Assembly: GCF_023278565.1 (NCBI RefSeq)
Contig: NC_064682.1
Location: 3,410,001 to 3,474,000 of the forward strand
Direction: 5' to 3'
DNA: 64,000 nt
DNA from: Colletotrichum lupini
Lineage: Eukaryota > Ascomycota > Sordariomycetes > Glomerellales > Glomerellaceae
Part shown: in pieces, positions 4,802-31,699 of the stretch
Position numbering within the stretch: the stretch's first letter is position 1
Layout: each line of letters opens with the position of its first letter
The notes under the pieces: model-generated
The model's database searches: none
What the model was told of the DNA's origin: nothing
What the model saw: the letters and a program-made list of their open reading frames with translations, nothing else
Position numbers and translations under genes: made by a program

Positions 4802-5193
4802 ATGGTACATAATACGCCCTTCTGTCTATGTTTCCGACTCCCTTTGTCATAGACTCCCTCATATATCAATTCTCAGCCACTGACGGGCCGTCCCGCCAAC
4901 AGCCGCCTCGCAAAAAGTATGCCTTTCGCTGGACCTGTGTGCGTCATTCCTATCTCTAGCTCTTTGCTTGCAGGTTCCCTCTCAATACGGGCGCCTAACC
5001 CATATTTCTGGTCAAATACTGACGATAGGAATAGTGTTATTGTGGTCAGGGAGGCATGAACGTGGTCACCGATCCCTGTGTCAATTGCGGATACCCTAGG
5101 TGTTCGCGTTGTCGCGTCGACAAACTGCACGTTCGGCAACACTTACACCACGATACTTCCCACAGTCAACATAGTCACGGCGGTTGTACGTAG
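4802..5193 (+). CDS. Zinc-ribbon-like micro-protein, cassette 1
   Basis: Three exons are proposed: 4802-4804 (the ATG only), 4903-4938 and 5035-5193, giving 65 residues. The ATG has A at -3 and G at +4, and is followed directly by a GTACAT donor. The intron carries a CACTGAC branch-site motif just before the CAG acceptor at 4900-4902. Exon 2 reads PPRKKYAFRWTC and exon 3 begins CYCGQGGM. Three CxxC knuckles are visible (WTCCYC, DPCVNC, PRCSRC), followed by a histidine-rich tail ending GGCT. This suggests a small metal-binding protein; the metal and partner are unknown. It lies about 420 bp upstream of, and on the same strand as, the large gene at 5613. The alternative start at 4828 reads through the intron and gives a sequence not conserved in the other copies. 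Exons 2 and 3 are much more certain than exon 1. Confidence 0.7.
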
Positions 5194-5250
5194 CCACGTT
5201 CGGCAACTCCTACATCACGATACTTCCCACGGTTAGCGCAGTCACGACGT
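5128..5250 (+). repeat. Imperfect direct repeat, 67 bp offset
   Basis: The segment beginning CACGTTCGGCAAC at 5128 recurs at 5195 with the same order of motifs (CACGATACTTCCCAC, then AGTCACG). The first unit lies in the last exon of the micro-protein gene and the second begins just after its TAG at 5191-5193. Because the offset is not a multiple of three, the second unit is in another frame. It looks like a local duplication of the 3' end of the gene. The other cassettes do not show it. Confidence 0.7.
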
Positions 5251-5612
5251 CATAGGTTGCAGAGGGAGGGCAACGCGGGCAACTCTTCTGTTCTATCGCA
5301 AGATATTTACTCGGTATCGTACACAAGACCGTCATTGGAGTTTCCGGCAATATCCCACGCATCGGGATCCTAGCTTTACGAAAAACGAAGACAACGAGAG
5401 ACGAATCGCAAAACAAACATCCAGGTCTGAAAGACGAAAGACAAGATTAAGAGTAATAATTGTAGTATCGCAGATTGGCGGACTTTGAACATTTTACTAT
5501 TTATAATTGAGAGAGTTGCGGAGCAAGACGCTATCAGAAATCGCTTCATCGCGGCCGAGGTGATACGAGTTGATAGAAACAACAACAAAGTCAATACGGG
5601 AGTGCACTAAAC

Positions 5613-8095
5613 ATGACATTACACCTAGAGAAAACAGCTTCAAGCTGTTCTCTCTCATTCCAGCCCGCGGATCACAGGACAGAAGCAGTTGGGCCGACTA
5701 AACTACCGAAGCCACTCGACGTGCAGGTACCCAACAGGGTCGAGCAAGCGGGAGCATTTCCCTGGCCAGAGCGATTCTTCAACAGGAGGAAGCTTCCTAG
5801 AGAATGGGAGAATACCCCATGGCTTTACGCTACCCTTCGAGATATGGAACAAGACCTGAAGTGGCCCGAAGAAGAAGATATACTGCGCTCCTTACGGACC
5901 GAAGAGAACTGGGCCCCGGACCAATTCCGACTTGATATTTTCCTCGATATTCTTCGTGGAAGAACACTCCAGCAGCTGGAAGAGGGTGCATACGGGGTGC
6001 CGGAAACCAAAGTTGCCCTCCTCATTGATAGCAACACCCTCGGCAGTGAACCGGTATTGCGACCCTTTCTTGGAGGCCTATCGGCAAGGCAGTTGTTGAA
6101 AGAGGCGGCCAAAGCGGTATGCAATTTTGACTTCCGAAAAGCAGTCGAAAAGTCAAGTCTGACGCTTTCAAACATAGCGCTACGAACTCGATGATGAATC
6201 ATCTACTGTCAGCGCATCTACTGTCAGCTGTGGCTTTATCGAAGCAGAACGCAGGTTGATGTGAGTCAAGCAGAAAACATGTACCTGTTTGTACACCTCC
6301 AGACACTTATATTCTTGCTGCTAGCTACGTGGTTGACCTAGATTCTTGGTCCATTCTTTCTCTTCTTGGATCATCTCCGGAGTCTCTTTACAGGGAGGTG
6401 ACCGAGTACATACTAAACCACCTCTCAGCTAAGAGTGAAATTGGAGTTTCTTTCGCTGTAAGTGGTGGATCTACATGTCTACCTTGTTCAAGGTTTATGA
6501 GTATGGCGTACTTACATTTTGGGTAGACGGAAGGACCAGAGACGTTTTTACTTAAACTTTCCCTACCGGTCAGAGCCTTACGCACAACATCCGAACTAAG
6601 GACTGACGATCGGAAGAAAAGGTCAAGTGAGGAACCTCTAAGATCATCATCAGACATCACGTTTATGAGAAGATTCACCGAGATGTCTACCGACGCCACT
6701 TCCTTCGATGTGATATACTCAAGCCATACGAGTACAATTGTCACGGGTTATGATCAACATCGCTGGACCGGAGTGGCCTTTCTTGAGAGCTGGTACGAAG
6801 ACGTGCTCGACGACGAACCACATCCCGACATGGTAGCCCGTTATGATAACGATAAAGACTATGGATGGATTTCCGACCCACTTTGTAGAGGTAGAAACGA
6901 CGTAATGAGGTCCTCACAGGAGCCTCGCAGCTACTTCATTCGCATCCTTCAAATCCGTCTAAACCAAATCAATGGTGAATGGGAATCCCTGTACTCCCAC
7001 TTAAACAAGGCTATTACAGCAGCGGTAAGAGAATTTCCTGTATCTCTCGATTGACAGATGAGCTTTCAGACTGATGGGGCGAACGTGTCTAAATTACAGC
7101 TAAGACAGCACAAGGAACTTCTTGATGGCGTTTTACGAGTGTCTCGTAGCTTCAGAGCTCAACAAGAAGCCGAGAACAAGCTCGACGAGTTTGAAATGAT
7201 CCTCAAGGAAGCTGCAGACGTTCTGAGGGATCTGAAAAAAAAACTCGGCGAGACCCTTAGTAGCGCCGCGGTTTTCACGGAAACCGATGTGAACTACTTC
7301 CTGCATCAAGATGGCCGAGTTGGAGATGCCATAGATTGCATGATGCCCTTATCCCAGATTCGGAAAACATTGAACAAAATGGGACGAACCCACCGAGATA
7401 TCGGCGAGCTGCAAGGAACATGCGAGTCCATGCTCGAGAGTGGTATTAGTGGGAGAAACAAGGTAGATTCACGCGTGACATCCTTTTTACTACTCTGAGA
7501 TAGTGTACGCTGATTTCTCTTTAAGTCTATGTTGAAAAAGAATATGAATGCGATGAATTCGATGGAGATTAGAATGCTGTCGTGGACAACTATGGTAAGT
7601 CGGAATCATAAGCTCAAAAGGTCCGTGGTCAATCGCTAATGTGAACGACAGATGTCTCAACCGCTCCTCAATGTAGCCGCGATCTTCAGCTGCGATGGTA
7701 TCATCACTTTCCCGCGGACATGGTACAATTTCCTCTACGCTCTTTTCATCATGGTAGCTGCTATGGGGTTCGTTGTAGTCTTCTTACTCCAGTTGGTGGA
7801 ATCTGGCGTCAGCCTGTTTGAAAGAAAAGCTGGAGGTGAGACTTCCACAAAAGAGTCCAGCCAAAGACGCGGCGTGACGGGCCCGGTGAACACCAACAGC
7901 CGCTTGCCACCCCGCAGATCCACATGGTGCACAAGCGGGATGGGGCACTTCCAGAGACGACACGCAGACATTGGCCTTCTTGATTTATCGGGACGGAGCG
8001 TGCTGGGTCAGCCGGCGATAATAGAGCCGAGTCTTCCCAAGCCTCCCATCGCTATCTTGGCAAGCCATAAAGGCTATACTGAGCCTCTTGCTTAG
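5613..8095 (+). CDS. Large CorA-like membrane protein, cassette 1 (intact)
   Basis: Seven exons, 711 residues: 5613-6116, 6178-6260, 6325-6457, 6527-7024, 7058-7462, 7526-7594 and 7652-8095. Intron phases are 0,2,0,0,0,0, the same as in the paralogues. Residues 1-168 form an N-terminal module with AGAFPWPERFF and a PFLGGLSA motif. Residues 196-240 hold YVVDLDSWSILSLLG. Residues 241-406 form a middle domain with IVTGYDQHRWTG. Residues 407-541 are helical with a probable coiled coil and the signature TDVNYFL. Exons 6-7 form a two-segment hydrophobic hairpin (about 554-577 and 592-611) built like the C-terminus of a large fungal group of CorA-like proteins. No GMN loop is present, so ion transport should not be assumed. 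A basic, low-complexity tail follows. The family is known to me only as uncharacterised fungal proteins. Location in a membrane is inferred. Confidence 0.75.
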
Positions 8096-11000
8096 TTGAC
8101 GTGACGTGTTCACTTGGAGTCTTCTTTGAGAGAGCTTATGTCCACGGTCACACTTGTCCATTCGAAGGTAAGGTACAAGGTACCTCGATAAGCAATAGTC
8201 TAATATACTTAGCCAATCAAAGAACGCCGCCCGAACCTTAAATTCTCAACCCCATTATCCTACCGACGAGCCACGTGGCGCTTCGTCATAATTCGAAGCG
8301 CCTGCGCCACAATCATCGCAAGTGCCTGTCACCCGCCGGCCGTACCTTCGGTACTTAAGGCACTCCGTACACACTGATCGCATTTGTTGCATTGGACCAC
8401 CTACCTTAAGGTAGTTTCAGTCAGAAATCAAAACAGATATATGTGGGGCACGTATGCTTTGCCAAAGACGGGCGGCTTCGATTGATGTTACGTCCAACTG
8501 GTTTAGTTGGCATTGCATATGTCCCCACGTGTTACCTTACCCAGGGTAGAGCTGAAAGCTCCGATTGACAGGCAACGTCTTGCTCTCATGTAGACTGGGA
8601 TCGAGTCTCGGTAAGAGCCAAAAGGTAGAAGACGGCAATTCTACCCTTCGAAGGTCATCTGATCGATAAAGGCTGGACTGCGCAAGAAGCTGTTCATTGG
8701 GCTATCGAACGTCGATGCTTTCCGGTAAAAGTGTTGGGGTCTGGTTAAACTGGATTCTTATCCGTACCAACTTTAGCAGCTGCCAATTGGTTCTCTGAAG
8801 TTCTGGGCACCAACGGCTCGTAGCCGAGGTAGCGTGCAACAGCACCAATGGAATCACTCTCAAAGTACGATGATGGTGTGCCACGACGATGAAAATCCGG
8901 GGTGAAGGAGACTTTGGCACTGGTGTTGCTTGAGCATGGTGCGGCATCCGCAGTATCAGCCGACCCTGTTGTCGTGATTTCCTTTCATTGGGCACAGTAT
9001 GTCGTGCAGGATTCATTGGGTAAAATCGATGCCGTCGCTGTGCGCCCCGTGACGGGCAAATTGAACTGCGTTTGGTGCGCCGCTTCAACCATCGGCGAGT
9101 TGACGTCTGACGATGCCACCCATTTGGCAAAACGGCCCGTTGAGCAATCGAGGCTGTAGATTTGAGTGGTAGGCACACGTTGTATGCGCCTACCACGGAA
9201 GCACCCTCCCAAAACAGGCACCACCCCAAGCAGAAACGTCACATGGGATGACATCGCCATTTCCACTGGGTGAGGTGCTAATTTCTCGTTCGTGAATCGC
9301 GGTATGAGCCGATCGAGACGTTGATGGCGCTACACGTCACTAGAGATGTTTTCGGTGAGGATTGATGAGTGCAATATCTAGGCAGTCGTTTTCCTCGTGA
9401 GCGGTTGGTGAAGCTCATCTCACGATGTTGTTTACTTGGTCGTTAGGTTTCGCAAGTAATGCAGCCCAACAATGGCGGTGAGACATGTACACAGCCTCAT
9501 TGGGGCCGAAGTCGGAGTGAGTTATGTCTCATTTAAATCAGTGAGACACCGAAAATATTGTCGTGTTGCACAAGACGTGACGTGCCCGCGGCGAGAACGC
9601 TTTCCTGCGCTTGGGAAATGATTGACGCATGTTGGCGGAGGACAATCGAAATGGGCGGTCAATATGTGTTCGCTATCAGATTGCCCAGTCGCAATTTGAG
9701 GAGATAGGGGTCATATCCGAGAATAAAGATAAGCTCACGTCGGCCCATCGGGTGGGTACGGGTTCGAACTGTGGCTGTGTGTCTGATTTTGTACGGATAT
9801 ACGTAGTAAGGCGACGGCAGGCGGCCGGGCCAGGATATACAAGCCAGAATATCATTCGCGGAAATGGGGTTGAAAGTGCAAAGTTAGGCCGCGCCCCCGC
9901 GACTCCAAAGGCTTCTGACGCAGCTTGAGATCGAGCCAAGGGCTCGCGTCACATGCTGCCTTTGTCTTTCACGGATATCGTGTGTGAGTGCCATCGGCAA
10001 GAGGAAAGTACTTTGGCGGAGCGTCTCGATTGGAGCCACGAATCCACGATGTTATCGGGCGTACGCTTCACAATACAGTATTGGGCACAACTGCTGGCGA
10101 GGCAATCGCAAAAGTGACCGAGGACAAGGGCAAACAATGCCTCGATGAATCGGCTTCTCCGACACTGAAAAAGAAAGATGTTGTTGGTAAACCGGTTGTC
10201 GGATGTATGGATCTCCCTGCCAACTTTTGCATGGGCCACAAAGGTGTAAAATTGTAACCAATTCTCCGGGACGGAAGGTGGATCTTTCTTAGCGAGGTCC
10301 ATCACGTGCCTCCCTCATGGGTGGAAGCCACCAGTGACAGCCCTGAGTCCTGACAAACTGATGACAAGGTGCTACGGATCAAGCTGCTTGTCATTTCAAC
10401 CTCCCATCTGCACCGTCTCCTTTATGCACACCCCCGATCGCGTCTGCATTGTACTTTTTCGACAAAACTTTCCGGCATGGCCTCTCAACCGGAATCATTT
10501 GCCAATAGTGGCCACACCGACCATCTTCTCTGAGCCATCCGCTCGACCGTTGCTGTTATCTCCGCGACGGGCCCTTTGGCCCAGGTGATCACACTCCAGG
10601 AAGCTCTCAGGTCTGGCGTCTTTCGCGCTGTCGAGTTCCCAGGTGATTGGAATTTCCGATCCCTGCAAACCTTACCCTGCACGACTCCTGCATTTCGGCT
10701 TTGAGAACACTGAAGTCTGTGTTAATCGCGTAGATTCGATTGCTGCTTGATATGCCTATCGAAATATGCATGAGGCGGAGGCTTGCTGGCTCGCAGCCAC
10801 AGCAATCTACCACCGCAATTGACCGACTTGACTGACCGGCCCACGTCATGTGACCTCCAAAAGTCAGACGGAATGTCTTGGGGATCTACCGGATGTCTTG
10901 ACGCGTCGTGGATTCCAGCATGTTTTGTACGCCCTTCGTTCCGCTGCACCAGGTTCAGGCCAATTCACCTGCCGATGAACGGCGCACTCAATTGGTGTCT

Positions 11001-11322: not shown

Positions 11323-11729
11323 ATGGTAATTACCACTTGCCATCTTTCAATGCCCATCCGACTCTCCATATAGCTCTTTACAACCACTCGCATGATATCC
11401 ACCCAGCCACTGACGAATCGTTCCACCGAAAGCCACCCCGAAAAAAGTACGCCTTCGTCTGGACTTGCGTACGTATTTACTTCCTCACCTACTGCTTATC
11501 CAAAGCCTAGAATGACTGAATTTGCAACCCACCTTATTACTCATTACAGAATACTAACAATGTTTCTCGATCACAGTGTTGTTGCGGACAAGGCGGTATG
11601 ACTGTGGTCATTGATCCTTGCCCCAACTGCCGCTATCCACGCTGCTCTCGTTGTGCCGTCACTAGAGTCCACGTCCGCCACCACGATCATAAGCCTTCGG
11701 ATCACTGTCAGAATCGTAATACAACCTAG
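11323..11729 (+). CDS. Zinc-ribbon-like micro-protein, cassette 2
   Basis: Exons 11323-11325 (ATG), 11433-11468 and 11577-11729 give 63 residues. The start context ACCATGG is ideal and a GTAATT donor follows at once. The intron ends with a CACTGAC branch motif and an AAG acceptor. Exon 2 reads PPRKKYAFVWTC and exon 3 begins CCCGQGGM. Knuckles are WTCCCC, DPCPNC and PRCSRC, followed by RVHVRHH and a His/Asp/Asn-rich tail. This copy gives the best evidence for the ATG-only first exon: reading upstream through the proposed intron in the exon 2 frame shows no methionine before a stop near 11216. It ends 337 bp before the large gene at 12067, on the same strand. Function is unknown; metal binding is inferred from the cysteines. 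Confidence 0.72.
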
Positions 11730-12066: not shown

Positions 12067-14748
12067 ATGGGTGTGTCCGCCGCTGGACCCGTAATTTCAA
12101 CCTCGACCTTACCGCACCGTTCTCCATCACGGGAGCCAAGGGATGGTCGGATCACGAATGAGAACTTGCCCGGGCACGGACAAAGTCATGGGCAAGCCGG
12201 GGCATTTTCTTGGCCGCCTAGGTTCTTCAGGCGAGAGCCTATCTCGAAGAACTGGGAGAACACGGCCTGGGTTACGGCCCATGTAGAAACTAAGCCTCCA
12301 GAAGAAACTGAGGAGGTTATCTATCTAACCCCGGGAGAACCCGAAGAGGAAGACCCTATTTTTTTCCTCAGTACAGAACACAATTGGGCAGCGGACAAAT
12401 CTCGTGTCGCACCTCTTGTTGCCTTCCTTCAGCGCGCAACGCTGGAGGAGCTCCAACAAGGACACCATCACATTCCGACTGATAATGTTGCCATACTCGT
12501 TGACGGCAACATTTCGAAGAACAAGGTCCATCCACGGCAGTATCTTGGCCCCTTGTCGGCACCTAGATTACTAGAGGAATTGCAAAGAAATGTGAGTTAT
12601 TAACGTCTTTTCAGAACGGCTACCTCTAGGCTTGCACACAATCAATACTAACCACTCGTAGCGCTACCATGAAGACGACAAGGGAGGTGACTCCATTGAC
12701 ACTGAAAGTGGACATGAAGCTGACGCAGAACGACGCCTGATGTAAGTATTCTCACGGTCTCCGAAGAATAGTGGGAAGAAATGAAAGAGGCGAGGAAGCT
12801 GATGTGTCTGTCTAGCTACGTCGTTAATCTCAGTCGGTGGGCCGTCCTCGCGCTCGTGGGATCTGCTCCAGAATCACTCTACAGGCAATTACCCGACTTC
12901 TTGCTTAATTATATCCTATCAAGACCTTCCCTTGGAGTGCATTTTTCGGTATGTGAATGTAGCTCCAAAGTCCCTGACCAATTCAAACAGCTGAAGTAGT
13001 TTAATTCATTCTAGACTGATGGTCCCGAAACCTTCGTCATGCAGTTTTCGTTTCCATACTGGGTATGGCGGACGTCGAAAACCTTGATACGAGACGACCG
13101 AGCCAAAAGTTCAGACGAGGACTCCCTGAGATCTTCACAAGATGTCACATTCTTACGCGCTCTTTCAGGCGCTCAAGCTGGTGGTGAGGGTGTCGACGCC
13201 ATCTACTCGAGCCACATCAGCTGCATTGTGACTGGGTACGATCAGTTTCGCTGGACCTGCATACTGCTATGCGAGGCCTGGTTCGAAGTCGAAGTCATTG
13301 GCTTGCCAACTCCCGATAGCATCGCACGATATGAATGTGAGATGCAGGATGTGGTGGACACGTTTGGCATGGTTGATGTGGTAAATGCGCTTGAAAACTG
13401 CCCGCTTTCAGATCCTCTAGTTCGTGGAAGAAGTATGATGCTCGACTCATCAACTCTAATGTGGCTCCCTCGCCCCTATTTTCTTCGCGTCTTTGAGGTT
13501 CGCCTGGGGCAGATCTATAAAGAGTTCCAAGGAATATTCTACAACTTTGACAAGTGGGTAAAGGGTATCGTAAGTCAGATCCGAGATTCAGTATAGGGTC
13601 ACACGGCTGATCTTACAATGCGCTACAGGGCGTGGAGCATCAGCGTCTGTTGCAACGCCTGCATAAGGCTGCGGGTGATGATCAGACTACCATAAGAGTG
13701 AGAGATGTCTTGGATGAATTGGACAATTTCGAAGATGGCATCCTTGAAGCGGAAAGGATAGTCAAATCACTGTCGCAGACTGTGGAGGGGATCGTTTCGA
13801 GCGGTGACCTGTTCATGACGACGGACGTGAATTACTTCCTTCATGCGGAAGGCCGAACAGGCGACGTATCAGCCTGTTACGCTTATTTATCGCAGATACG
13901 AAGGGCATTCACGGACCTTCGACAACTGCGCATAAGATTTAGGGACCTACAAACCCAATATGAGGAAATGATTAAGAAGGGAGTAGCTGCGAGGGACAAG
14001 GTAACGACCCCCGACGTACAGGCAGACACTGACGCTGGATCTTTCAACTGACAAGGTGAAAAGGCCTTCCTTCGCTTTAAGTTTCGGAAAGCTCAGCCCA
14101 CTCCAGATCCAGCCCCGATTCCCGCTTCCATCGTTGTGCCCCAACAACCTTTGGTGGTTTGCGTCTCAGCTTGGATGACAGTTGTATGTGTTTCTTTCAC
14201 AGAATCCCACCCTTTCTCAACGTAACATAGTTTTGGGACAATCTTCTTACACATCTTGCCAGATTTCTCAACCGCTTGTCAACATAGCCGCCATCTTTGG
14301 CTGTGACGAAATCATCAAATTCAGTCGCACGCCTGGGAACTTTCTGATCTCTCTCGCTCTAATGAGCCTGGGCATGCCCATCATCATCTGGGCTTGCATA
14401 GGACTAACCTCTGGCGGATTTGAATGGTCATTCATCAACTGCTCTCGAGAAAGAGGGAACGCAACCAACGCGAATCCCAATCTCAGAGACAGCTTGCAAG
14501 AGCCGATTGATGGTCCCGCAACTCACCCAATTCGTCGTGCAACATTGCACACAAGATTCATGAACTGGTGGCAGAGATACCACGTTGAGGAACGTCTGCC
14601 TTTCAGAGCGGCTGTTCCACTGGCGCCACCTCCCCAGGCGGGTGTTGATCTCAACGTTTTAAATTTCCGGGCTGGGGCCGATGCAGAGGAGCAACATCAT
14701 GCTCCAAATCAAGCAGGGCCAGTTGCTCGAGCGCGCGAAAGAGCTTGA
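12067..14748 (+). CDS. Large CorA-like membrane protein, cassette 2 (intact)
   Basis: Exons 12067-12591, 12662-12741, 12816-12948, 13015-13569, 13629-14000, 14082-14183 and 14263-14748 give 750 residues, with the same intron positions and phases as the cassette 1 gene. Conserved blocks are QAGAFSWPPRFF in the N-terminal module, RYHEDD then AERRLI at the exon 2/3 junction, YVVNLSRWAVLALVG, IVTGYDQFRWTC, TDVNYFLHAEGRTGD in the helical region, and SQPLVNIAAIFGCDEIIKF leading into a hydrophobic helix at about 617-637. Exon 6 is longer than in cassette 1 and proline rich. The tail of roughly 110 residues is not conserved. Donors and acceptors are canonical, and no stop or frameshift was found. A second exon 6 acceptor near 14053 was rejected because it leads to a stop. 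Function unknown; a membrane-anchored protein is inferred. Confidence 0.75.
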
Positions 14749-17313: not shown

Positions 17314-17628
17314 ATGGTACATTTACCACTGTTCTTCTCTCGTGATACGGACTATAAATGTATCGTTTCTCGCCCATCAGTCACTGATACTGCGCTTCTT
17401 GTCCAGCCTCCGAGAAAGAAATATGCGTTCATGTGGACTTGTGTAAGTACTTGATAGTCCGTCCCGCTGCCTTTCCAGCTCGCTAGCCTTGTTCCCTCTA
17501 TGACTAAAATTGATATAAAGATACTAATATCAATCTCAGTGTTGCTATGGACAAGGCGGTATGACTATAGTTATAGATCCTTGCCCTAATTGCCGCTATC
17601 CGCGTTATTCGCAGTGCAGGGTAGAAAG

Positions 17629-17633
17629 GGTTC
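17629..17633. repeat. Target-site duplication of LTR element 1 (left)
   Basis: GGTTC lies immediately before the left LTR and is repeated exactly at 25053-25057 after the right LTR. A perfect 5 bp duplication fixes both ends of the element and shows that it is a complete insertion. Confidence 0.9.
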
Positions 17634-17838
17634 TATTAGTATCCCTATTATAAGGTAGTTAGTTCGAACCGTAGTTAACGAAGAGATTAATTAAACTATA
17701 TAAATATCTACGTAATAAGTATAAAAAAGAGGTTTTAATTATAAGTTAAGCTAGCTATAATAATCGTAAATAGGGCCCCTAATTAGCCCCTATATAGTTA
17801 GCTATATACCGTAGTTAAATTAAACTTCTAATTTAATA
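17634..17838. repeat. Left LTR of element 1 (205 bp)
   Basis: It begins TATTAGTATCCC (RIPped form of TGTTGGTATCCC, which survives in copy 2) and ends TTTAATA (RIPped form of CCGACA). It aligns over its full length with 24848-25052 and with both LTRs of copy 2. Confidence 0.88.
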
Positions 17839-20800
17839 CTAACTTTTTTTTTTATTAATTTAACCGCTATAGTTAGAAATATAATTCGACCTCGGGCCCG
17901 TTTATTAAGTCGTCTTTTTTTTCCTTTTTCTTTTACTCTTTTTATATAACCTATCCCTTTATTTATATAATAACTTTTCTATTATTTATAAATTACTCTA
18001 ATCCCTTATTTAGTACTATTTTTATAAAAGCGTTTACGAAGTTATTTTTATTATTAATCTAACGGATCTTAAGTATTTTATACTTTTTGTACGATTACCT
18101 AAGGGCTATAATATCGATTATAAGCCTCTTTTCCTTCGTCGTTCTTAATTTAATAAGGTATTTATATAGTAAGTAAGAATCGGTATAAATAACTATTAAA
18201 ATAAATAAAAAGCTAATTTAATTAGTAATCTTCCTTAGCGTTATTAAAATTACGTAAGAGAGGTTAATGTTATTCACTATATTATAAACTTTTAATACTA
18301 ATATACTTCTCGTTATTTACTTATTTTTAATTAATAAGTAATAGATTCTATTACTATATATAATAAATTCGCTTTTACTTATACTCTTATTAGCTAGGAT
18401 AATAATATACCCTAATTACGAAATAAGGTCGTTATTATTTATAAATAACTTATTAATAAAAACGTAGAGCTTATTAATTACAAAGTTAATTAAGTAATAA
18501 ACGAGACTTTAATTAAGATTCGTTTACTACTACTTAAGCTACTTATTAAGTACTTTAATATCTCGTTTAGTTAAATTTATAGCTTATACTACCCTAGTAT
18601 AATTAAAAATTATTTCGGGCTAATAAATATTTATAATATATACCCCTCGTATAAGCTTAGCTTTATATTATTTTTTAATATTAATTATATTTAAATTAAC
18701 GAGGTTAATCTTCTCGCCCTACCCCTTTTATTAAAAAACGACAGTTTTTTTTTTAATTATAAGAATCCCGCTATTAAATACTAAGGGGGTATTTATTATA
18801 AGGACCTTTTTTAGCTTCGTTATAAAGCCCGCTTTTTAAAGCTCCTTATCCTCCTTTTTTATAAAATTAATATTAAATAGGCTTAATATATTATTAGTTT
18901 ATATTCTAACGATCCTAAATTAGTTACTTTTATACTCCGCGATTAGTAAGTATAGGTTATATATAAAAATAATTATTAATAATTAATTAATATAAAAATT
19001 ATAATAAGTAGCTTATTAATAAGTACCCGATTTTATGAGCCTATATAATAGCTTAAGTACTTTAATAATCGTACTTTTTAAGTACTTATTAGCTATTTCT
19101 TTTAGTAAATAGGCTAGGATTTTCTTTATAAGCCCTATAACTAATTAAGTATAGGCCTAGGTAATATTATAACTCTAAATCTCGTATCCCTTTTTCTATA
19201 ATAATATTATTAGTATTATTATTAATCGTTAGCTATAGCGTTATATAATAAGTAATTATATAAGTAGCGTCGCTTTTTTAACGTCGCCGTACTTTTAAAT
19301 TATATATTTAGACTTTTTATATAGCCAGGGTATTCCTTTCCCTTTAATTTTATAAGCTATTCGTAATTTAAATATATAGAGGTTTATATATTTTTCTAAG
19401 TTATATAAGATAAATCAATAGACCCCTCGATTATAAAAAGTATTTATTTTAATAAGATCTAATCCTTTATACAGCTTTTTAATAATTATAATTATACTTT
19501 CTTTACGTAGTTTAACCGCTAGCTTAAAATTAGTTTTTTTTTTTATTATATAAAAAGTATTAATTACCTCGTTATTAGTAATAAATTATTACGTTAGGGC
19601 TTACCGTCGTAGTTTTTTATAACGTCTTATTAGTAATATTCGTACCCTTTTAGCAATTTCCTCTTCTTTATTATTTATTAATATTATTACGATAACTTTA
19701 TTAAAAATAATTTTTTATACCTTTATTACGGGTTATATAGTTTCCCCTAGCTCTTTTTTTTTTTATAAGTTAGAAATTACCTTATTAAGATTTATATAAT
19801 ACGGTCTAACTATTATAATTAATATTTTAAATAGCTAGTCGTAATTTCTTATAACTATATAAAAGCGCTCGTTAATAGAAATTAACTTATATAGCCTAGC
19901 TTATTATTAAGTAATTTCGCGCTATATTTATATATTTAAATTTAGTAATATATTTAGATTACCCCCTATATTAGGCTTATTGCGCGTAGTAATTACCTCG
20001 TTAACTTATTTTTTTATATTTACCTCGCGCAGTACTTATATTACTTTTTTAACTACTCGGGCTCGTTAGCTTATACTTAATAATAATAGCGAGGCTAAGG
20101 TCGTTCTTAAATATACTCTAAATACTAATAATATTAATATAAATCCGTTAGGCCCTATAATATCGTTATAATATTTAAGTACTATCTAGAGGTATTCGTC
20201 GTTAATAAAATCCGGATTTCTTTTTTTAATAATTCTAAACGCCCTTTTTAATTACTAATATACCCTTTTTACTTTTTTAATATTATAGTGCGCTTTAACG
20301 GGTACGACTTTTAGTTATATATTATAGGCCGTTATATTATCCTTAAATTTTATTAACTTAAAGCTAGTATTAGCGTCGGTTCTAATATTATTTAGTAGTC
20401 CTTAATATATATCGATCTAGCTTTTTTATAGGGCTACTTATATTATTTTTATTTATAAATCCTAGAGGAATTACCTTACTTAAAAAGATATAGCTACGTT
20501 AATTATATATAGTACTAGCCGACTATTTAAATAAAAGATATCGATAACGATTTCCTAGTTAAAATTAAGCTTATTACGTAATTTAAACTTAAATTTACGT
20601 AGGCTTTGCGTATTTATTTAGTATTAGTAATATACTTTCGTTAACTACTCTAGCGCCCCTATTTCGATATTATTATTATTTAATTACTTTAAGAGGTTAT
20701 ATAGCCTTATAACTAACGAGTACCCAAATCTTTAGTATAGTTTTCTAAGCTTATTTTTTGTTAAGTAATTAATTAACTTCGTATTATTAATAAGCTTTAT

Positions 20801-23800
20801 AAACGTATACCCCTATTATTATTTAATTATTTTAAAGTACTTACCGCTAGAGATTCTATTTTTTATATTATTAAATATAATACTTAGTCGATCTATATTT
20901 TTTAAATATAAGAGAAATAGGGTATTAATAAGTAGAATATAAAAAGTTATCGTTCCGAAGTACGTTTTTACTTTTATTATATTTAGGGCGACGATTTCCT
21001 TATTTAGGCCGAAACTAATCTTTATAATACCTATTATTAACGTATTAAATATTACTAATACGATCTTTTATAATACTTAAAATTACCTTTTTCTTTTAGT
21101 TAACTATTATAATACCCTAATATTTAAAATAATCCTATAGAAATTATCCAAGCTATACTTTTTACTTATATAAAATACTTATATAAGCTTAGTATTTAAA
21201 AGATCTAAGTAATATAAAAAGGACCCCTCTAGCTACCCCTAGATTTACTTAGTATTATATTCTTTTTTTTTTAAATATTAAAAAAAATAGCGTCTTCTCT
21301 TTAATTATTAAGAAAATAGGCTTTGGCCTTATTAAATTTACTTTTTTAGCTATTTTTATATCCGTTATTTAAAAGACCTTCCCTTATTATTTATAAATAA
21401 AAGCTTACTTATTAAAAGCTTTCGCTACCCTCTATTCGTTTAGCCTCGTATATTCTTTAAAAGCTAATAAGGTAAAAAAAGAGTAGTTAATATTATTAAT
21501 TTCGTTATAATTTAATTCGTTAGTATAAGGGATAAGATCTTCCTTATTTTCTAAATCTCTTATAAGAAGTATATACTTTAAGTTATTATTTTAACTACTA
21601 TTACCAAGTTCTATACCCTTAGATTTATTTTTATATATAATAAGGAATTAGTTAAACTAATAAGGGCTAGTTCTACTATTTACTACCCTCGACTTTTTAT
21701 ACTATTTATATAATTTAATACGCTCTTTTTTAAAATAATTACTTAACTAATATCTATCCTTTTTATAAATATAATATTACCTCTTTTATTACCCTATTTA
21801 TAAGTTAAATCTCTACTTATTTAATAAATCTAGGCCTCTTTATTAGTAATTATTATATCTAGCCTCTTTTCCTTTTTTATTATACATTTAATCGACTTAA
21901 TATTATTAATAAGGGCCGTTATATACTTAGAAATAGGTTTAGTATAGTATTTTTATTTTAATATTAAAACTAGATCTTAGCCTCGAGTAAAGTATTTTAT
22001 AGTTTTTAAGTACTTAGTATAGGGTTATTTTTATTTTTAATATACGTTAAATTATAGTAAAAAAATATCCGACTTTCTATTTATTTATCCCCTTATTTAG
22101 CTAGGTTTTCGCTAGCTTATTAATTCGATTAATAAGCTCTTTAAGGATCTTTATTTATAATTTACCCTCTATTATCTTAGCTATAAATATAAAAGAAATC
22201 GCTCGTAGTTTAAATAAGAGCTCTAAGTTCTTATCGTAAGTCTTAAAGCGGCTTCGGATTACGTTAATTATATTAAAAAAGTCGTTTTAATTAAGATTAC
22301 GTACTACTTTATAATAATAATTAGAGGCTTTACTTATAAATATAATATTAATTACTAAATAGTATTAATATTCCCTAATTTTAATTTTTTTATAATAATT
22401 ATAAAATATTATTAGGGTTTTTTATAAGACCTTATACTTCCCCCTAAAATACAATTTCTCTTTTAAAAAGATCTTTTTAAAGTTTATAAATTACTTCGTA
22501 TTTACTACTAGATTTTTAGTATTTATATACGATCCTTACGTCGCTATATATGATTAATAACTTCGGGTTATTTACTTTTTTTTTTATTAACCGATCGGCA
22601 CCGAATTTCGTATTAGTAGCGATAACGAGTTATAAATTAAAATAAATAGAATTATTAATTATCGTACTTCTAATACTATATTTTACCCTAGTATATTCTT
22701 TTATAATAATAAATTTTTATTAGTAATTATAAGGAGGAAATCTAAGTCCTTTACCCTTTTTTTAAATTCATTAAAACGATTATACGCTCTATTAACTTAT
22801 ACTTAGTTCTATAATACAAATTCCTCCTTTATAATTATTATTACTAATATTTTATATAGCTCTTATAATTATAATTACGTTAATAATACCCCTTACTTAT
22901 AAAAGAATTTATTAACTACTTTTATAATTCCTAAGCTTGCGCTTATAAACTATTCGTTTAGTTAGTAACTAAAGTTATTTATAATTTTATAAAATAGGGG
23001 TTACCCCTATAGCCCCTTTTTCTTATAGACCTTAGTTAAATAAATTAATACTATATTAATTTACTTACCGTTAGGCTAATTTATAATTTTATATATCTAC
23101 GTTCCTTAATAATCTAGGTTAATATTTACTTACTTATAAAGGATTAAAATTCTATTTAAAATTAGGTTTCGTTCTCTTTTTCTTTACCCTAACTCGCTAA
23201 GGGTCGTACTCTAACTTATACTTATATCAATAATTACTAGCGTATTTAATCTTAATAAGGATATATTTAATCCGCGCGCTAATTATAATAAATCCGTACT
23301 TTTACTACTTAACGAATTTATTAAGGTCTAAGAGATTCTTATTTTTTCTTACTATCTCGCTACTATTCTTATTTTTATTATTATTAATAATTATTATTTC
23401 CCCTTTAAATCGCTAATTATTATACTTATTAAGATCCTCTTTTTTATTTAGTATAAAAGGATAAGTTTTAGTAGTTCTTTTTTATAATAATAATAATAAA
23501 CGTTTATATTATTATAAAAAGATATAATAATTAGTCTCGGGATTTTTATTAGTTACCGATTTCCGTTATCCTATATACTTTTAGCTTCTTAAGCCTTATA
23601 TTCTTTATAATCTCTAAATAGTTTCCTTTTTTAACCTACCTCTTTTAAGGTAATATTCTATAAAAATAGTTAAAAATAAATACTAAGCGGCTCGTAAAGG
23701 AGCTATATAAGCTATCAAGAACTATATAAACTATTAAATATAGTTAATAAAATTAAGCCCTCTTTTTTATAAAATCGTAGATTTTAAGGACTTATTAAAA

Positions 23801-24847
23801 AATACCTACTTATTACTCATACGTAGTAGGGTTAAATACCTTAAAAAACTTATTTTTTATAACCTCTTAATACCCTATTTTATCTTTTTTAAATAGTCTT
23901 TTTCGTAGCTTAATTATAGTTAAGTAATTATTACTTATTAATAATCCCTTTTATTACTTAGTTAATTTCTTAAAATTAGTAATTTCGTACTAAGAGTTAA
24001 TATAAAAAAGAGCCCTTTAGTAGCTTTTTAAAAGATTTCTTTTTTCTTTTTAAATCCTTATTTTTTTAGCCTTTTCTTAAGCTAATAATAACTTTAATAA
24101 GAGGTTATAGGATTATTTTAAAATAGCCGCTTTTTTTTTAAGTTAATTTCTAAGATTTATAATACTCTTAACTCGATATTATTAAAACTTCTAAATCCCC
24201 TCCTCTTTTATTAAACCGTCCCCTATATTATATTTTTAAATAATACCCGGGGGGTAGTTAAGGGAGCTATAAAGAGGTCGTTTAAATTATGGGCTTAAGG
24301 TTATATTTATAAAATCCTTATAATAATAAACTTTTTTATATACTTTAAATCTCTTAGTTTAATAACTCTTATAAAGTTACTTTTATTACTAAATAAGAAT
24401 ATTTATATTTAAAAATCCCCTTTTTTAATTACGTAATACTCTTTTATATTATATTATTAAGCTCGTTTGTCATACTAATTAATTAGGTAAATAGTCGTTA
24501 TATAAGTATTTCTTTTTATTAATTTAACTAGTTAATTTCTAATTACGGGCCGGCTATAGAAAAGTTATTTAATAAAAAAGCTACTTACGGTAATAATAAA
24601 AGGCTAGTTATTTAAGTAGTTCCGCTAATTAACGTATTTTAATATAATAAACGTTAAACTCTTATAAATAATAAAGGGCTATAATTACTTAATTCTATAT
24701 ACTATTTAAAAATCGCCTCCTTTTTCGTTTACTTCTATAAGGTTAATTAATATAAATCTCCTATCCCGTATAATATTAAGAAGTCGTCTCTTCTGTATAA
24801 TAAAATACCTTACTAATCTATAATAATAGAATTTAATTACTAATTAG

Positions 24848-25052
24848 TATTAGTATCCCTATTATAAAGTAATTAGTTCGAACTATAATTAATAAAAAGA
24901 TTAATTAAACTATATAAATATCTGCGTAATAGGTATGAAAAGGAGGTTCTAACCGTAAGTTAGGCTAGCTACGATAATCGTAAATAGGGCCCCTAATTAG
25001 CCCCTGCGCAGTCGGCTGTATGCCGTAGTCGAATTGGACTTCCAATCCGATA
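24848..25052. repeat. Right LTR of element 1 (205 bp)
   Basis: Starts TATTAGTATCCC and ends GACTTCCAATCCGATA, followed at once by the GGTTC target duplication at 25053-25057. Its last ~60 bp are much less mutated than those of the left LTR, so RIP intensity fades toward the element edge. Confidence 0.88.
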
Positions 25053-25110
25053 GGTTCAGATACGCCAGCAGGAACAAAGTCTGCAGTCACCTAATAGCCC
25101 AGTTGTATAA

Positions 25111-25715: not shown

Positions 25716-27474
25716 ATGAGTAGCAACATAGACGCGGAGGTCGCTCTCCGGGTGGTGAATGGCTCATATAAGCCTGCCGGACTCCCGAAGCCGAAAGACG
25801 TGCAGATTTCAAGAGTGAACAAGCGCTCTGGAGCATTCGCTTGGCCGTCGAGGTTCTTCTTGCGAGAAAACATATCAGTCAGCTGGGGAAACTCGCCCTT
25901 TATCGCCGAGGACCTCAAGTCGACCGCCGCAGAGCTAGAGGGAGACGATGTCGGTTTCATGCTTAGAACCGAAGAGAATTGGGCGCCGGACCGATATCGG
26001 ATTGACTGTATTCTTGACATCGTCCGGGAAGCTAGCCTCAGAAAGCTTCGGGAAGGAGATGAAGGTGCACAGAGAGAGAAGATCGCACTCCTAATCGACG
26101 GCAACAACTCCGGGGCACAACCAACTTTCCGGGAGTTTCTTGGCGGCCTCACCGCGCAAGAGCTGCATGAAGAACTCAGGAAGCAGGTTAGTGGTCTTCT
26201 TCGCACGAGATCCCCCGAAATCATGAATGCTCCTCAGACACTTTATTAGCGCTATGGTGATGACGACGAGGTCCCCATTGTTAATGCTGACCGGAGATTG
26301 ATGTGAGTTGCAAGTTAAATATGAATTTTCGCTTGATAGTTGTTGAGAGAATGATCGAAACTGACTTTCTACCAGCTATATATCTAATTTGGATGCATGG
26401 GGCATTCTCACACTTGTTGGGACTGCACCTGAATCTCCATCTCGTCTTTTGGGCGACTTCATGATCAACTATATATGTGCAAGCCCGTCAATCGGAGGTT
26501 CATTTTCTGTGGGTCTGACTTCCTTAACATTGTGTTGTTTTGGCGCTGATAACCCAACAAGACTGAGGGGCCAGAGACATTCACTATGCAGTTTTCCTTA
26601 CCATTTCGTGTATGGAGATCTAACAATGGATCGATGAGTGACAATCGTCAAAAGAAGCCTCCAGGAGAGCCACTTCGAGCATCGAGAAATGCCACATTCT
26701 TGAGGTGCCTAGCGCAGTGTCAAGGGCCTCTGAACTACACGGATGGCATCTACGCTACTACCATGAGTTGTATGGTCACTGGCTATGACCAATGGCGTTG
26801 GACCGGATTGGTTCTCTTGGAAACCTGGTTCGATGAGATCCTTGATGACCCGTCGCCAGATATGATAACTCGATACGAGAACGATTTCCAGGATGGAATG
26901 ATCTCAGATCCTCTGTGCAGAGGAAAGGATGATGCGACCAGAACCGAGTGGTCTCCTCGGCCTTATTTCATCCATGTTCTCGAGATACGTATTGTACAGA
27001 TTTATCGAGAGTGGACTTTTCTATTCGCGAGACTTGACGAAAGATTGAAGGGGATAGTGAGTGTTTGCCCCCAGTGTTCCTCCGTTGTCATCAGGCCAAA
27101 ATGTCGCTTACAAGTCCCATCTACTTAGACCAGGCGGCAGAAAGATTTGATAGTACGTGCCCGGGTACCAGCAAAAGAACCACGAGAATTCCAATCGAGA
27201 CAGGGTCAGATCCTGCGGGACTTCGATGAGTTTGAAAGGGGCTTCAGCGAACTTAAGGACATTCTAAAAGAGCTCGCGCAGGATTTGAAAGAGACCGCCA
27301 GAAGCGGCGAATCCTTCATGAATACGGACGTCCGCTATCTTATCAACGATAACGAACCAGAAGACACATCTCTTTGATTTGCACACTAGACGCAAATCCG
27401 AAACACGTTCACCATTCTGATCGAGCCACTAGGGATGAGACTTAGAGACATGCAGCAAAAGTCCAGAGACAAGA
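25716..27474 (+). pseudogene. Large CorA-like protein, cassette 3 (broken 3' part)
   Basis: Exons 25716-26186, 26250-26302, 26376-26508, 26562-27056 and 27141-27377 match exons 1-5 of the intact paralogues in position and phase. The N-terminal module (SGAFAWPSRFF, EFLGGLTAQ), YISNLDAWGILTLVG and MVTGYDQWRWTG are all well kept. After 462 residues a TGA at 27375-27377 and a TAG four codons later fall in the same frame. Beyond them the frame goes on matching (QIRNTF, then RLRDMQQ) up to 27473, where the donor GT has become AT. The stops replace the Cys and Leu of the paralogues without gaps. No exon 6 or 7, hence no membrane hairpin, was found downstream. If expressed it would give a soluble 462-residue protein, so recruitment of the short form cannot be excluded. 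Confidence 0.75.
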
Positions 27475-27851: not shown

Positions 27852-28361
27852 TAAGTGAAGGTATCCTTCTAAACGATAGCTGTCCTCCTTCTGAGGGGTT
27901 TATTACGTCTTGCGAGGATGTCTTTCTATAAATGGTAAGTACAAGTAGCAGTGTTTGGGCCGGAGTCACGATTATCAACACTTTAAACTGAGATGACTTT
28001 TGTCAGAGAACGCTAGAGCACTCTCGATAAGTATGGGCTAAGAGAATTTCATGTCCGTATCTTTCTGAGCACTGCCGAATGAAAGTCAAAACAATTTGAG
28101 GCGCTGTTCGCCCCTCTTCGAACCAGGCGACCAAGACTTAGCTCCAACCCGAAAGGATTGGCCTTGGTCCTTTCATGATTGCAGCCTCATTATCTGCCTT
28201 AAGTACCATGCATTGATACCTGAACCTTGTTTGAACATGCCAAGGATCAATCGCAGTTGAGAGCGACAGGTGAATTTGGAGTGCGACCCTCTGCCCAACT
28301 TTTTGGAGATTGAGTATTTATGGCAGGGAAGTAGCTAAGAAATAAGTTCCCTCCTGACTTT
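27475..28361. other. Interval between cassettes 3 and 4
   Basis: About 890 bp. The exons expected at the 3' end of the cassette 3 large gene are not found. A minus-strand open frame lies within it (27429-27851, listed separately). The rest shows no recognisable content. Confidence 0.4.
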
Positions 28362-28612
28362 ATGTCTCCCTTGATTGTATTCGCACTTCCTTTTCTTGTT
28401 TGTTCCTCAGCCTCGAACACGAAAGAATTTGTACTCATGTGGATAGTTGTATGTTTCCTTCGATTCAACCAACGGAAAAGAATAGTCTCTACAGCCCTAG
28501 CTGCTCAATTCAACCGATTAAGTGCTACTTTGAGCAGTTTAGCATGAAGGTAAGCAGTCATAGACCCTTGTGTTACCCTTCGATACTGCCGTTGCCATCG
28601 ATGTCACGCTGA
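28362..28612 (+). pseudogene. Decayed zinc-ribbon micro-protein gene, cassette 4
   Basis: The order of parts is kept but every functional point is damaged. The ATG at 28362-28364 is followed by TCTCCC instead of a GTA donor. The CAG acceptor at 28408-28410 precedes CCTCGAACACGAAAG, matching exon 2 of the other copies, but the exon is 38 bp instead of 36 (28411-28448) and runs into TAG. After a GTATGT donor, an exon at 28523 reads CYFEQFSMKV against CYCGQGGMNV of cassette 1; the later CxxC knuckles are lost. It lies about 470 bp upstream of the cassette 4 large gene, exactly where the paired gene sits elsewhere. Confidence 0.6.
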
Positions 28613-29078
28613 CAGACTGCAGACACAGCATCAGCATCATTACAGTAACTCACACAAATCATCTCACTACCAATAGCCTGAGTGCTTAGTACTTGAGAGA
28701 TTGGTGACGATTAGGCAAGACAGTAAGGGACAACGCACGAGCATAGAGTGTGCGCATGAGCAGTCACTACAGTGGTGACAGGGAACATCGCGATATACAC
28801 TGTTTACTCGAGGCGAGAATCAAAATTGCTGAAGAAGCACTTGAGTTAGCCAAGGAGCACGTATAGCTCTTATATTTCCCGATATCAGAAGGTCTCCAAG
28901 TTTTATAGTAAGCTCTTTTCTACCCAATAAGAGTCCAAGACCGTTGTCATGTATATTCAAAAGCTCGTGCCGACCATTATCTTGAATGAATGCTTGTCAG
29001 CACGGTCCTTCGAAGTTTTGATTGTGTTGTATGATATCTGATGTTTATTTGCAGGTTTTCTCTGCATGAATTCTCTAG

Positions 29079-31699
29079 ATGTTGAACGATAGCCAGCTTC
29101 ACAGCGGCTTTGGTTGGCCTCAGCAATTCTCGCAAAAAGGAAAGATAGCCAGGAATTTTGAAAATGTACCGTGGCTAAGCTACCAAGAAGAGTTCAACTC
29201 ACCGAGAGACGCTATTAGCTTTTTTTTCCAATTTGACGATGATGACGTGAGGTATCATGGGCGCGTCCGTCCTGTCCTTGATATTTGTCAGAATGTGGAC
29301 CTTCGCGACCTTCCCAGCATCGACTCTCTCGACGGGGAGAAGAGAGTGGCTTGGTTGATAGAAGGTCAGCTTGTTGATGGCGTCATCAATCTTCGAGATT
29401 GCTTGGGATCATTAACTGCTCGCCGACTCGCTGAAGCTTTGTCGACACCAGTAAGTTCCTGCGGAGCACCAATCTGCAGTATCATCATGACCAATGGAAG
29501 TTTATAATTGTCAGTGCTCTGACAGGATCGATAGCGCTATCGGAATACTACAACTATCAACAGACAAGAACAAGACAATGCCCGAGAAATGAACCTGGAT
29601 AAAGAAACGCCAGCTTTTGATGCTGAGCGTCGCCTACTGTAAGAACCCGCGCCTACCCCTCAAATCATTTCACTAGAAGCAAAGAGACGGTCGAGACATT
29701 TTTCCATGGATCGAGATATTCATAGCCAATGTAGTTATCTTACCAACTTGGATTGTTGGAGTATTCTCGCGCTGGTGAGAACTGCTCCTATCTCACAGGC
29801 TCGGCTTCTTGGAGACTTTTTTCACAAGCATCTGAGCTCCAGAGCGTCAATAGGGGTCGCATTCGAGGTGAGACTCAACGTATGAATTTTTAGGCTGTTA
29901 TAAGAGTGCTAATGAGTTTGCCTATGGTTCTTCATCAGGTTCAGGGGCATCCATTGTTCTCCCTTGAATTTTACCTGCCGTTTCGAGCCTGGCGGAAAAC
30001 CAAACGTCTTCTCAGAGATGAAAGAATCAAGATATCGGACCAAGAATCTCTCCGATCATCAATGAATGTCACAAACTTGATGCCTCCGGGAGGTGGTGAC
30101 GAGGCGAATCAGGTTCACGGTATCTACGCAGGTCATATTGCTTGTTTGGTCAGCGGGCATGATTATTGGCAATGGACAGCATACTTCTCTATCGACACTT
30201 GGTTCGATGAAGATGAAGGCATAAATGACCAGGTAACACGTTATGATAATGACATGGAAGATGAAAGCGGATGCGACTTTGAGCCGGATCCTTGTAGCGG
30301 TGGACAAGACGACGCCAGAAAGCCATACTGGAACCCACGAGTTTGGTTTCTTCGCATATTTGGCATTCGACTTGATCAAATCGAAGACGAATGGGAATGT
30401 ATATCCCTTCACTTAGGAAATAGTATTGAGCGACAGGTATGATCCCACTACGAGGACCCAAAACCGGCGAAATGATAATGTATCCTCTAGGATCGGGAGC
30501 ATAAGATGCTCCTCCGTGAAGAACGACTATCACTTGGACTTACTAGTACTGAGCGGCATGGATCTAGGGTCAATTCCCTGAAGACCTTGATGCTAGAGTC
30601 TAGAGATATTCTGCAAGATCTTCTGAGCGTCGTCCGGGAAACGGTGAAGATTGGGGCATCTTTCCTGTCAACGGAAGTGAACTTCTTTCTTCAAGTTGAC
30701 GGGCAGGCTGGAGACACGTCGGAGTGCTACCCTTATCTTAGGGACATCAGGCGGATATTCAATGAGCTAGATCAGCTCAGCTTTCGACTAGAAAGCTATC
30801 AGGAGAAATGCAACTCCGTGATACAATGCTGTGAAGCACTCAAGAATAATGTGTGGCCCGAGTACTTGTCTCATACACACTGTAGTCACTGACAGGTCTT
30901 AGAATCCCCTAAGAATATTCTCACCAATCTCAGACGAGCGATCTGCTGTCAGCTCTGTAGGTGTAATCTTGTCCGAGTAAGGATTCCTGGAACTCGTCGC
31001 TTACGACACACAGCACGGCATGCTGCAAGTACAGGTAGAGATGGAGAAATTGCGAAGCGTAAGGCCCCTCACTTGTGGAAGAAAAGCTAAGGGCTAATAA
31101 AATAAGCAGGAGTTGATACAACTGAGGGTGAAAAACGAACAACTTATTGCCATCGAGCCAAAGGATGTGGAGGAAGTTCGCGTCCTCGCATTTAGCACAC
31201 TGGTCCGTCTGAAATTCTATCCCGCCCATTTGACAAAGATGCGCAAGAGACTACTAACAAAATTTGGCATTCGCAGCTTACGCAGGCTTTCTCGCAAACT
31301 ACTGCACTTTTTAGCGCAGAGGGCGTTATCGCCTTCACAAAGAACTGGCAATCATTTCTAATATCACTTCTCGTAGCGTATGGCATTAACTTTTCGATTG
31401 GAACCGCCTTTCTTATTTGGATTCGAAGGGCGCGCCGAAAATTGCAAGATGCATGTGCCTCGAAGTCAGAGCCGTTGCTGCCTGTCGTGCAGCCTACACA
31501 GAATCTCGACGCTGCCTCCGCTATCACGTTGAGATCAAGAAGTGAGCCTGTGACTCAAGGCATTTCCACACACATTGCTTCGATAAGATTCAATGAGGGT
31601 GACATCACAGTCCACAACCGGCGTCGATTCTCAGACAGATTCTGGTCAAGCTATAGGCAGCCGGAGAGGGTGGATGTTGGTATCCCTATTATAAGGTAG
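29079..31699 (+). CDS. Large CorA-like membrane protein, cassette 4, truncated by LTR element 2
   Basis: Exons 29079-29450, 29535-29638, 29735-29867, 29939-30436, 30491-30850, 31110-31202 and 31286-31699 follow the family pattern (657 residues to the stop now used). The N-terminus is about 40 residues shorter than in cassettes 1-3; the ATG follows CTCTAG, so an upstream exon is possible. Conserved blocks: YLTNLDCWSILALV, LVSGHDYWQWTA, STEVNFFLQVDGQAGD, then VRVLAFSTL and ALFSAEGVIAF leading into a hydrophobic helix at about 544-565. The retrotransposon enters the last exon at 31675, so the final eight codons and the TAG at 31697-31699 come from the LTR. Without the insertion the frame would run on from 39101 to a TAA at 39150-39152. 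The intron 6 donor is GTCCGT. All named domains lie before the insertion, so a protein may still be made. Confidence 0.65.
31670..31674. repeat. Target-site duplication of LTR element 2 (left)
   Basis: GTGGA precedes the left LTR; GTAGA follows the right LTR at 39096-39100. The single difference is G to A in a TpG context, the change RIP would cause, so these are read as a 5 bp duplication altered after insertion. Confidence 0.8.

What the first reader, a model, noticed from the sequence alone, without database searches (positions are those of the whole stretch)
4802..31699. Four tandem copies of a two-gene cassette: three-knuckle micro-protein plus CorA-like membrane protein
Seen in sequence: each of four large paralogues (5613, 12067, 25716, 29079) has, 340-620 bp upstream on the same strand, a copy of the same tiny gene (4802, 11323, 17314, 28362). 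Exon order and intron phases agree in all copies. Duplication has kept the pair together, so the two products probably work together, for example as a metal-binding regulator with a membrane effector. Inference: such multicopy, fast-decaying pairs next to retrotransposons recall fungal non-self recognition or cell-death loci, but nothing in the sequence proves this. I know of no described system of this make-up.
Basis: partly seen in the sequence, partly recalled or inferred. Interest (0 to 1): 0.85.

Follow-up and report, generated by a model that had tools for sequence, protein, structure and literature searches.

The report
Paired zinc-knuckle and CorA-like genes
In the lupin anthracnose fungus a tiny, overlooked gene for a cysteine-rich protein sits again and again just in front of a gene for a membrane protein that models like magnesium channels but lacks their signature motif; the pairing looks old, so the two products may well work together, but what they do is unproven.

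Summary
The window lies in Colletotrichum lupini. Four CorA-like paralogues occur on the + strand, each behind a copy of one tiny gene. Pairs 1 and 2 are intact (about 420 and 340 bp apart). Micro-gene 3 is split by a 7.4-kb retrotransposon, micro-gene 4 is a relic, large 3 is truncated, and large 4 ends in an LTR. The micro-gene is real: exons are conserved where introns and upstream DNA are not, and pN is 0.11-0.19 although silent sites are saturated. Its first coding exon is only ATG, which may explain why it is missed. The large copies fall in four clades with relatives in other Colletotrichum species, so the array is old. A fifth pair lies on contig C1. As far as searched, 5 of 6 large loci have a micro-gene upstream; 5 of 11 micro loci have a large gene. 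The large protein models as a CorA/ZntB fold but lacks GMN at its membrane hairpin and any Pfam CorA hit. Best reading: an old two-gene module of a metal-knuckle regulator and a channel-like membrane protein, more likely in conflict or allorecognition than in housekeeping Mg2+ transport. That role is inferred.

The parts
4802..5193 (+). micro-gene 1, intact: exons 4802-4804 (ATG), 4903-4938, 5035-5193 incl. stop; 65 aa, three CxxC knuckles
5613..8095 (+). large gene 1, intact, 711 aa, 7 exons (5613-6116, 6178-6260, 6325-6457, 6527-7024, 7058-7462, 7526-7594, 7652-8095); GMN-less CorA-fold family
   Evidence: fold from its C. tamarilloi relative P0003; deposited as CLUP02_16884 in a fused model
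11323..11729 (+). micro-gene 2, intact: 11323-11325, 11433-11468, 11577-11729 incl. stop; 63 aa
12067..14748 (+). large gene 2, open in the model used (716 aa; 12067-12591, 12662-12741, 12816-12948, 13015-13569, 13629-14000, 14263-14748); a possible short exon between 14000 and 14263 is unresolved
17314..17633 (+). micro-gene 3, damaged: 17314-17316, 17407-17442, 17540-17633; two knuckle cysteines are tyrosine and the last exon is split by a retrotransposon
17634..25052 (.). LTR retrotransposon A (7.4 kb, GC 23%, strong RIP signature) inside micro-gene 3; GGTTC on both sides
25716..27377 (+). large gene 3, truncated: 25716-26186, 26250-26302, 26376-26508, 26562-27056, 27129-27377 (stop); no membrane segment
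28362..28661 (+). micro-gene 4, relic (knuckle part 28551-28661)
29079..31674 (+). large gene 4: exons 29079-29450, 29535-29638, 29735-29867, 29939-30436, 30491-about 30850, unresolved stretch, membrane exon from about 31270; 3' end runs into an LTR
31675..39095 (.). LTR retrotransposon B, same family as A (87% over 3,671 bases); flanks GTGGA/GTAGA
39352..39720 (+). 3' fragment of a third membrane-protein gene; relatives of this sequence are run together with the large protein in the models P0016, P0017 and P0021

Best explanation
It is an old two-gene module. SHOWN: (1) a mostly unannotated micro-gene encoding a 63-65-residue protein with a W-x-C-x2-C...C-x2-C...C-x2-C pattern, under strong purifying selection; (2) downstream on the same strand, a large gene whose family models as a CorA/ZntB-type cytosolic domain, long helices and two C-terminal membrane helices, without the GMN motif at the hairpin. 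INFERRED: the micro-protein binds zinc through its cysteine knuckles and acts in the cytosol (by eye it has no signal peptide) on the cytosolic domain of its neighbour, as gate, partner or sensor; the neighbour is an altered channel or membrane effector rather than an Mg2+ importer. INFERRED, weaker: the birth-and-death pattern (deep paralogues, truncated and transposon-broken copies) points to a conflict role such as allorecognition or defence.
Against: Model confidence is moderate (pLDDT 64.5, pTM 0.61, 16 sequences), long helices inflate Z, and Foldseek's TM-scores by query length are only 0.22-0.28 for the CorA rows 1-14. The micro exists without a large gene at 6 of 11 loci, and large 4 stands beside a dead micro, so neither strictly needs the other. 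C3's large gene has no micro in the stretches read. Only 4 of 10 control loci were read. No expression, binding or phenotype data. The micro's own fold could not be modelled (pLDDT 49.6). No population data for any conflict role.
Confidence: 0.45

Rival explanations
1. Metal homeostasis pair: the large protein transports Zn2+ or another divalent ion as ZntB does, and the micro-protein is its zinc-loaded chaperone or sensor.
For: The best compact structural match is a ZntB cytosolic domain; the micro-protein has three CxxC knuckles and a histidine-rich tail.
Against: No GxN motif at the membrane hairpin; classic CorA-domain loci exist elsewhere in the genome (10 over the Pfam cut-off), and the 5 kb upstream of the 4 that were read hold no micro; copies are freely broken, unusual for housekeeping transport.
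Confidence: 0.2
2. One gene, not two: the micro exons are alternative first exons of the large gene, as deposited models suggest.
For: The P0004 and P0023 models run from micro sequence into the large gene; the gap is short (337 and 422 bp).
Against: Micro copies 1 and 2 have their own stop; selection acts on the knuckle exon, most of which the C. orbiculare model skips; P0001 and P0002 are separate deposited proteins; solo micro-genes exist on C8 and C5.
Confidence: 0.1
3. Bystander linkage: the two genes were once neighbours, were duplicated together in one array, and have no functional tie.
For: Array copies share one origin; micro-genes occur alone; large 4 persists beside a dead micro.
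Against: Adjacency also at the unlinked C1 locus with a large protein about 28% identical, and in C. orbiculare; silent sites of the micro copies are saturated, so the link has lasted very long.
Confidence: 0.15
4. Selfish killer-protector pair: large protein as membrane poison, micro-protein as antidote, spreading as a drive element.
For: Two-gene make-up, multiple copies, decay, transposon-rich site.
Against: Related copies are shared among many Colletotrichum species, so they are not recent invaders; C. lupini is described as asexual (PMC11645255, title and abstract start seen, passages); large 4 persists beside a dead micro.
Confidence: 0.07

Closest known systems
CorA / ZntB / Mrs2 metal ion transporters
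   Same: Predicted alpha/beta cytosolic domain, long helices and two C-terminal membrane helices; CorA/ZntB/Mrs2-type entries (with CmaX) fill ranks 1-35 of the VIA-align list.
   Different: No Pfam PF01544 hit, no GxN at the hairpin but AAxFSCDxI-like sequence, extra N-terminal region, roughly 100-residue C-terminal tail, paired micro-gene.
mimpvic32 of Morchella importuna (CorA-like gene in a vegetative-incompatibility interval; PMC8940278, passages and sections 15 and 17 read)
   Same: Fungal gene with 8 introns, 765 (text) or 773 (table) aa, a CorA-like domain, most of the non-synonymous differences of the interval, linked to vegetative incompatibility by bulk segregants.
   Different: Linkage only, no gene test, and barrages also form between strains sharing the alleles; that protein was assigned to PF01544, ours is not; homology to our family not tested; the second candidate there encodes 1,311-1,324 aa, no micro-protein is mentioned in what I read.
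Two-gene fungal cell-death clusters (NWD2/HET-S, as described in PMC12881547, passages seen; het-Q1/het-Q2 recalled)
   Same: Small adjacent gene sets of a sensor or regulator and a membrane-active effector.
   Different: No NACHT, HET, HeLo or gasdermin family appears in the Pfam lists of the large and micro proteins scanned.
Zinc-ribbon proteins (ribosomal eL37, rubrerythrin/rubredoxin type)
   Same: Two CxxC knuckles at similar spacing; weak profile similarity (eL37 E 0.012 and above).
   Different: Third CxxC and histidine-rich tail; Pfam E-values of single members no better than 0.0023 and spread over unlike families; fold not modelled.

Membership tests
CorA/ZntB/Mrs2 superfamily | Overall fold of the cytosolic domain and two C-terminal membrane helices | tested here: met
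CorA/ZntB/Mrs2 superfamily | GMN (GxN) signature at the end of the first membrane helix | tested here: not met
   25 sequences scanned (22 deposited proteins P0003-P0024, large 1, large 2, membrane exon of large 4): 18 show the hairpin motif and none has G[MVI]N there; 7 lack the motif (other, partial or misjoined C-termini); stray GxN elsewhere in 7
CorA/ZntB/Mrs2 superfamily | Match to Pfam PF01544 | tested here: not met
   No hit in large 1, large 2 and 7 homologues scanned; none of the 6 large loci among the 22 genome matches of PF01544
CorA/ZntB/Mrs2 superfamily | Pentamer that conducts divalent cations | not testable with these tools
   needs biochemistry
Fungal heterokaryon-incompatibility (het) genes | HET, NACHT, HeLo or gasdermin domain | tested here: not met
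   Pfam scans of large 1 and 2, 7 homologues and 9 micro-proteins list none of them
Fungal heterokaryon-incompatibility (het) genes | Allelic differences that trigger death on hyphal fusion | not testable with these tools
   no strains or population sequences held
Zinc-ribbon / rubredoxin-like proteins | Paired CxxC knuckles | tested here: met
   Three CxxC in both intact window micro-proteins, in P0001 and in the C1 copy; C28, C31 and C39 invariant in 9 of 9 aligned
Zinc-ribbon / rubredoxin-like proteins | Zinc-ribbon fold | tested here: inconclusive
   model pLDDT 49.6; sequence profile to eL37 E 0.012

The most novel reading that the evidence does not exclude
A new kind of fungal recognition or defence module: a cytosolic zinc-knuckle micro-protein gates a channel-like membrane protein built on a CorA scaffold that has lost its Mg2+ selectivity motif, so that mismatch or infection opens it and harms the cell.
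Probability: 0.18. Interest if true: 0.85.

Novelty: new variant of a known kind. Interest (0 to 1): 0.52.

Why it matters
It adds a gene that deposited annotation mostly misses (a coding exon of three bases plus a tiny protein), a GMN-less branch of the CorA fold spread through Colletotrichum, and a co-inherited pair that makes a testable link between a metal-knuckle regulator and a membrane channel scaffold. If the role is in recognition or defence, it would be a type of fungal conflict system that the papers found here do not describe.

Tried and rejected
Considered and set aside: 'recent tandem duplication' (rejected: silent sites saturated; four clades with outside relatives). 'Micro-gene is chance' (rejected). 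'Micro-gene always goes with the large gene' (rejected: solo copies on C8, C5 and C1). 'Third gene is part of the module everywhere' (not supported: one genome match only, inside the fragment, window 39385-39657). Structure of the micro-protein: failed. PDB search with the large-family profile by sequence: designed helical bundles, keratin and the like, best E 0.015. PDB search with the C3 upstream frame: nothing. Search of prokaryote genomes for the large protein: no relative. Wider protein search with a profile listed 24 proteins, 19 named Colletotrichum and 5 unnamed; only the 7,995 candidates sharing most words were scored, and 6 proteins found were not listed, so this does not show absence in other fungi. 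First gapped-identity comparison of exons and introns was uninformative because gaps inflate identity; replaced by score z-values. The first splice choice for exon 2 of large 4 gave a stop; the acceptor that matches the other copies was used later. dN/dS is not quoted as a ratio because dS is saturated. dN/dS between species could not be done: no DNA of other Colletotrichum is held. Paper searches for a described pair or for CorA-like genes in allorecognition; no listed paper describes the pair. CorA-like mentions seen as single passages in PMC10754465, PMC12720139 and PMC12345182 do not bear on a pair.
Full report
WHERE. The window is bases 3,410,001-3,474,000 of contig C9 of a 63.4-Mb, 12-contig genome. 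C9 is 4,657,399 bases long, the contig length listed for protein P0004, 'CLUP02_16884 [Colletotrichum lupini]', so I take the genome to be the C. lupini CLUP02 assembly (named as IMI 504893 in a passage of PMC11645255).

THE LARGE GENES. Hand splicing gave large 1 (711 aa, 7 exons) and large 2 (716 aa) as open models, large 3 ending at a stop in exon 5, and large 4 open through five exons with a separate membrane exon and an unresolved stretch between. Intron phases 1-4 are 0,2,0,0 in 4 of 4. Exon-4 protein identity between copies is 36-49%. A tree of 24 proteins places large 4 with C. fructicola (support 100/99), large 3 with C. graminicola, C. destructivum and C. shisoi (100/99), large 2 with C. 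costaricense, C. godetiae and C. acutatum (100/100), and large 1 with C. tamarilloi (100/98) inside a group with C. acutatum, C. godetiae, C. orchidophilum and C. paranaense (100/100); the order of the deep forks is unresolved. P0004, P0009, P0023 and P0025-P0032 were left out of that tree as fused, partial or redundant. C. fructicola, C. graminicola and C. destructivum belong to other species complexes than C. lupini (recalled), so copies 3 and 4 at least predate the split of those complexes.

THE MICRO-GENES. In copies 1-3 ATG is followed at once by a GT donor, then a 36-base exon (PPRKKYAFxWTC), a phase-0 intron and the knuckle exon. Between these copies exons 2 and 3 align at z 9-32; introns and upstream DNA give z -1.5 to 2.0. 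In the coding frame pN is 0.11-0.19 and pS 0.86-1.09; in the two other frames this asymmetry is lost or reversed (pS 0.13-0.46, pN 0.28-0.44). A single-sequence search found only two deposited micro-proteins, from C. eremochloae and C. abscissum; the latter is 35 of 43 identical to micro 2.

PAIRING IN THIS GENOME. Protein queries found 6 large loci (C9 four, C1, C3) and 11 micro loci (C9 four, C1 three, C8 three, C5 one; sequences read); the tool calls such counts lower bounds. Five of 6 large loci have a micro or its relic upstream on the same strand. At C1 the micro has all six knuckle cysteines and its end lies 1,874 bases before the large start. The C3 large gene has no micro in the stretches read; its upstream part may lie 6.5 kb away, behind a stretch that looks AT-rich and TE-like, in a 767-residue frame carrying GDSGG (weak, profile E 0.19-0.24). 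No large locus was found on C8 or C5, and the two other C1 micro-genes lie more than 20 kb from the C1 large gene; both look decayed.

PAIRING ELSEWHERE. The C. orbiculare model P0023 begins MPPRKKYGFIWTC and continues into the large protein; the C. lupini model P0004 also contains part of micro 1's knuckle exon. The C. eremochloae micro P0001 and large P0016 are listed from a contig of the same length. I had no DNA of other fungi, so adjacency could not be counted directly.

HOW IT MAY WORK. The conserved cysteines argue for metal binding; the conserved order argues for a joint role. I infer a cytosolic regulator of a membrane protein. The conflict reading rests on multiplicity, decay, deep paralogy and sequence change (large 1 is 86% identical to its C. 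tamarilloi relative; large 2 is 74-80% identical to its C. godetiae relative by region outside the two tails; no housekeeping yardstick was available), plus one outside lead: a CorA-like gene was one of two candidates in a vegetative-incompatibility interval of Morchella importuna (PMC8940278, sections 15 and 17), where the authors note barrages also between strains sharing those alleles. Against it: no recognised death domain, micro-genes living alone, large 4 beside a dead micro.

DECAY. Micro 3 carries retrotransposon A; the end of large 4 meets retrotransposon B; the C1 large gene is cut by an LTR of the same family (91.5% over 213 bases). Both elements show strong RIP (TpA/ApT 1.50 and 1.55; second index 0.07 and 0.09), the genes do not. 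The same LTR also occurs in 5 of the 18 other stretches compared, so its hits here may only reflect abundance.

NOVELTY. Six paper searches listed no account of the pair. The module is a new variant built on known folds; a new kind of system is possible but unproven.

Noticed in passing
window 4802-8095: The deposited C. lupini model CLUP02_16884 (P0004, 859 aa) mixes upstream sequence, part of micro-gene 1 and large gene 1, and lacks parts of the large protein; it looks misannotated.
   Followed up: partly
L028 (G000:C8:996500-1006400), minus strand about 4853-4658, 2068-1764, 578-350: Three diverged micro-genes in tandem, each with the intron right after W-x-C, and no large gene within the neighbouring stretches read.
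   Followed up: partly
L042 (G000:C5:5272501-5282400), minus 4983-4876: A further solo micro-gene, nearest to one of the C8 copies, without a large gene in the 10 kb read.
   Followed up: partly
L034 (G000:C1:5265701-5275600) 1261-1437: A micro-gene relic contains an inverted 177-base copy (91.5%) of sequence in a neighbouring 538-aa reading frame: filler DNA or local duplication.
   Followed up: partly
L037 (G000:C3:1089600-1099499) 5521-7821 and L029 4661-6371: The C3 large gene may be split by a TE-like AT-rich stretch, and its first part continues a long frame with a GDSGG motif, perhaps a protease-like domain (by eye; no Pfam or PDB match).
   Followed up: partly
window 39352-39720: Fragment of a third membrane-protein gene whose relatives are run together with large proteins in C. 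eremochloae, C. simmondsii and C. destructivum models.
   Followed up: partly
window 52153-63387: By eye from reading frames: an FAD-linked oxidase, glycoside hydrolases, a sugar-type transporter and zinc-cluster/zinc-finger regulators side by side, looking like a sugar-use cluster; not tested.
   Followed up: no
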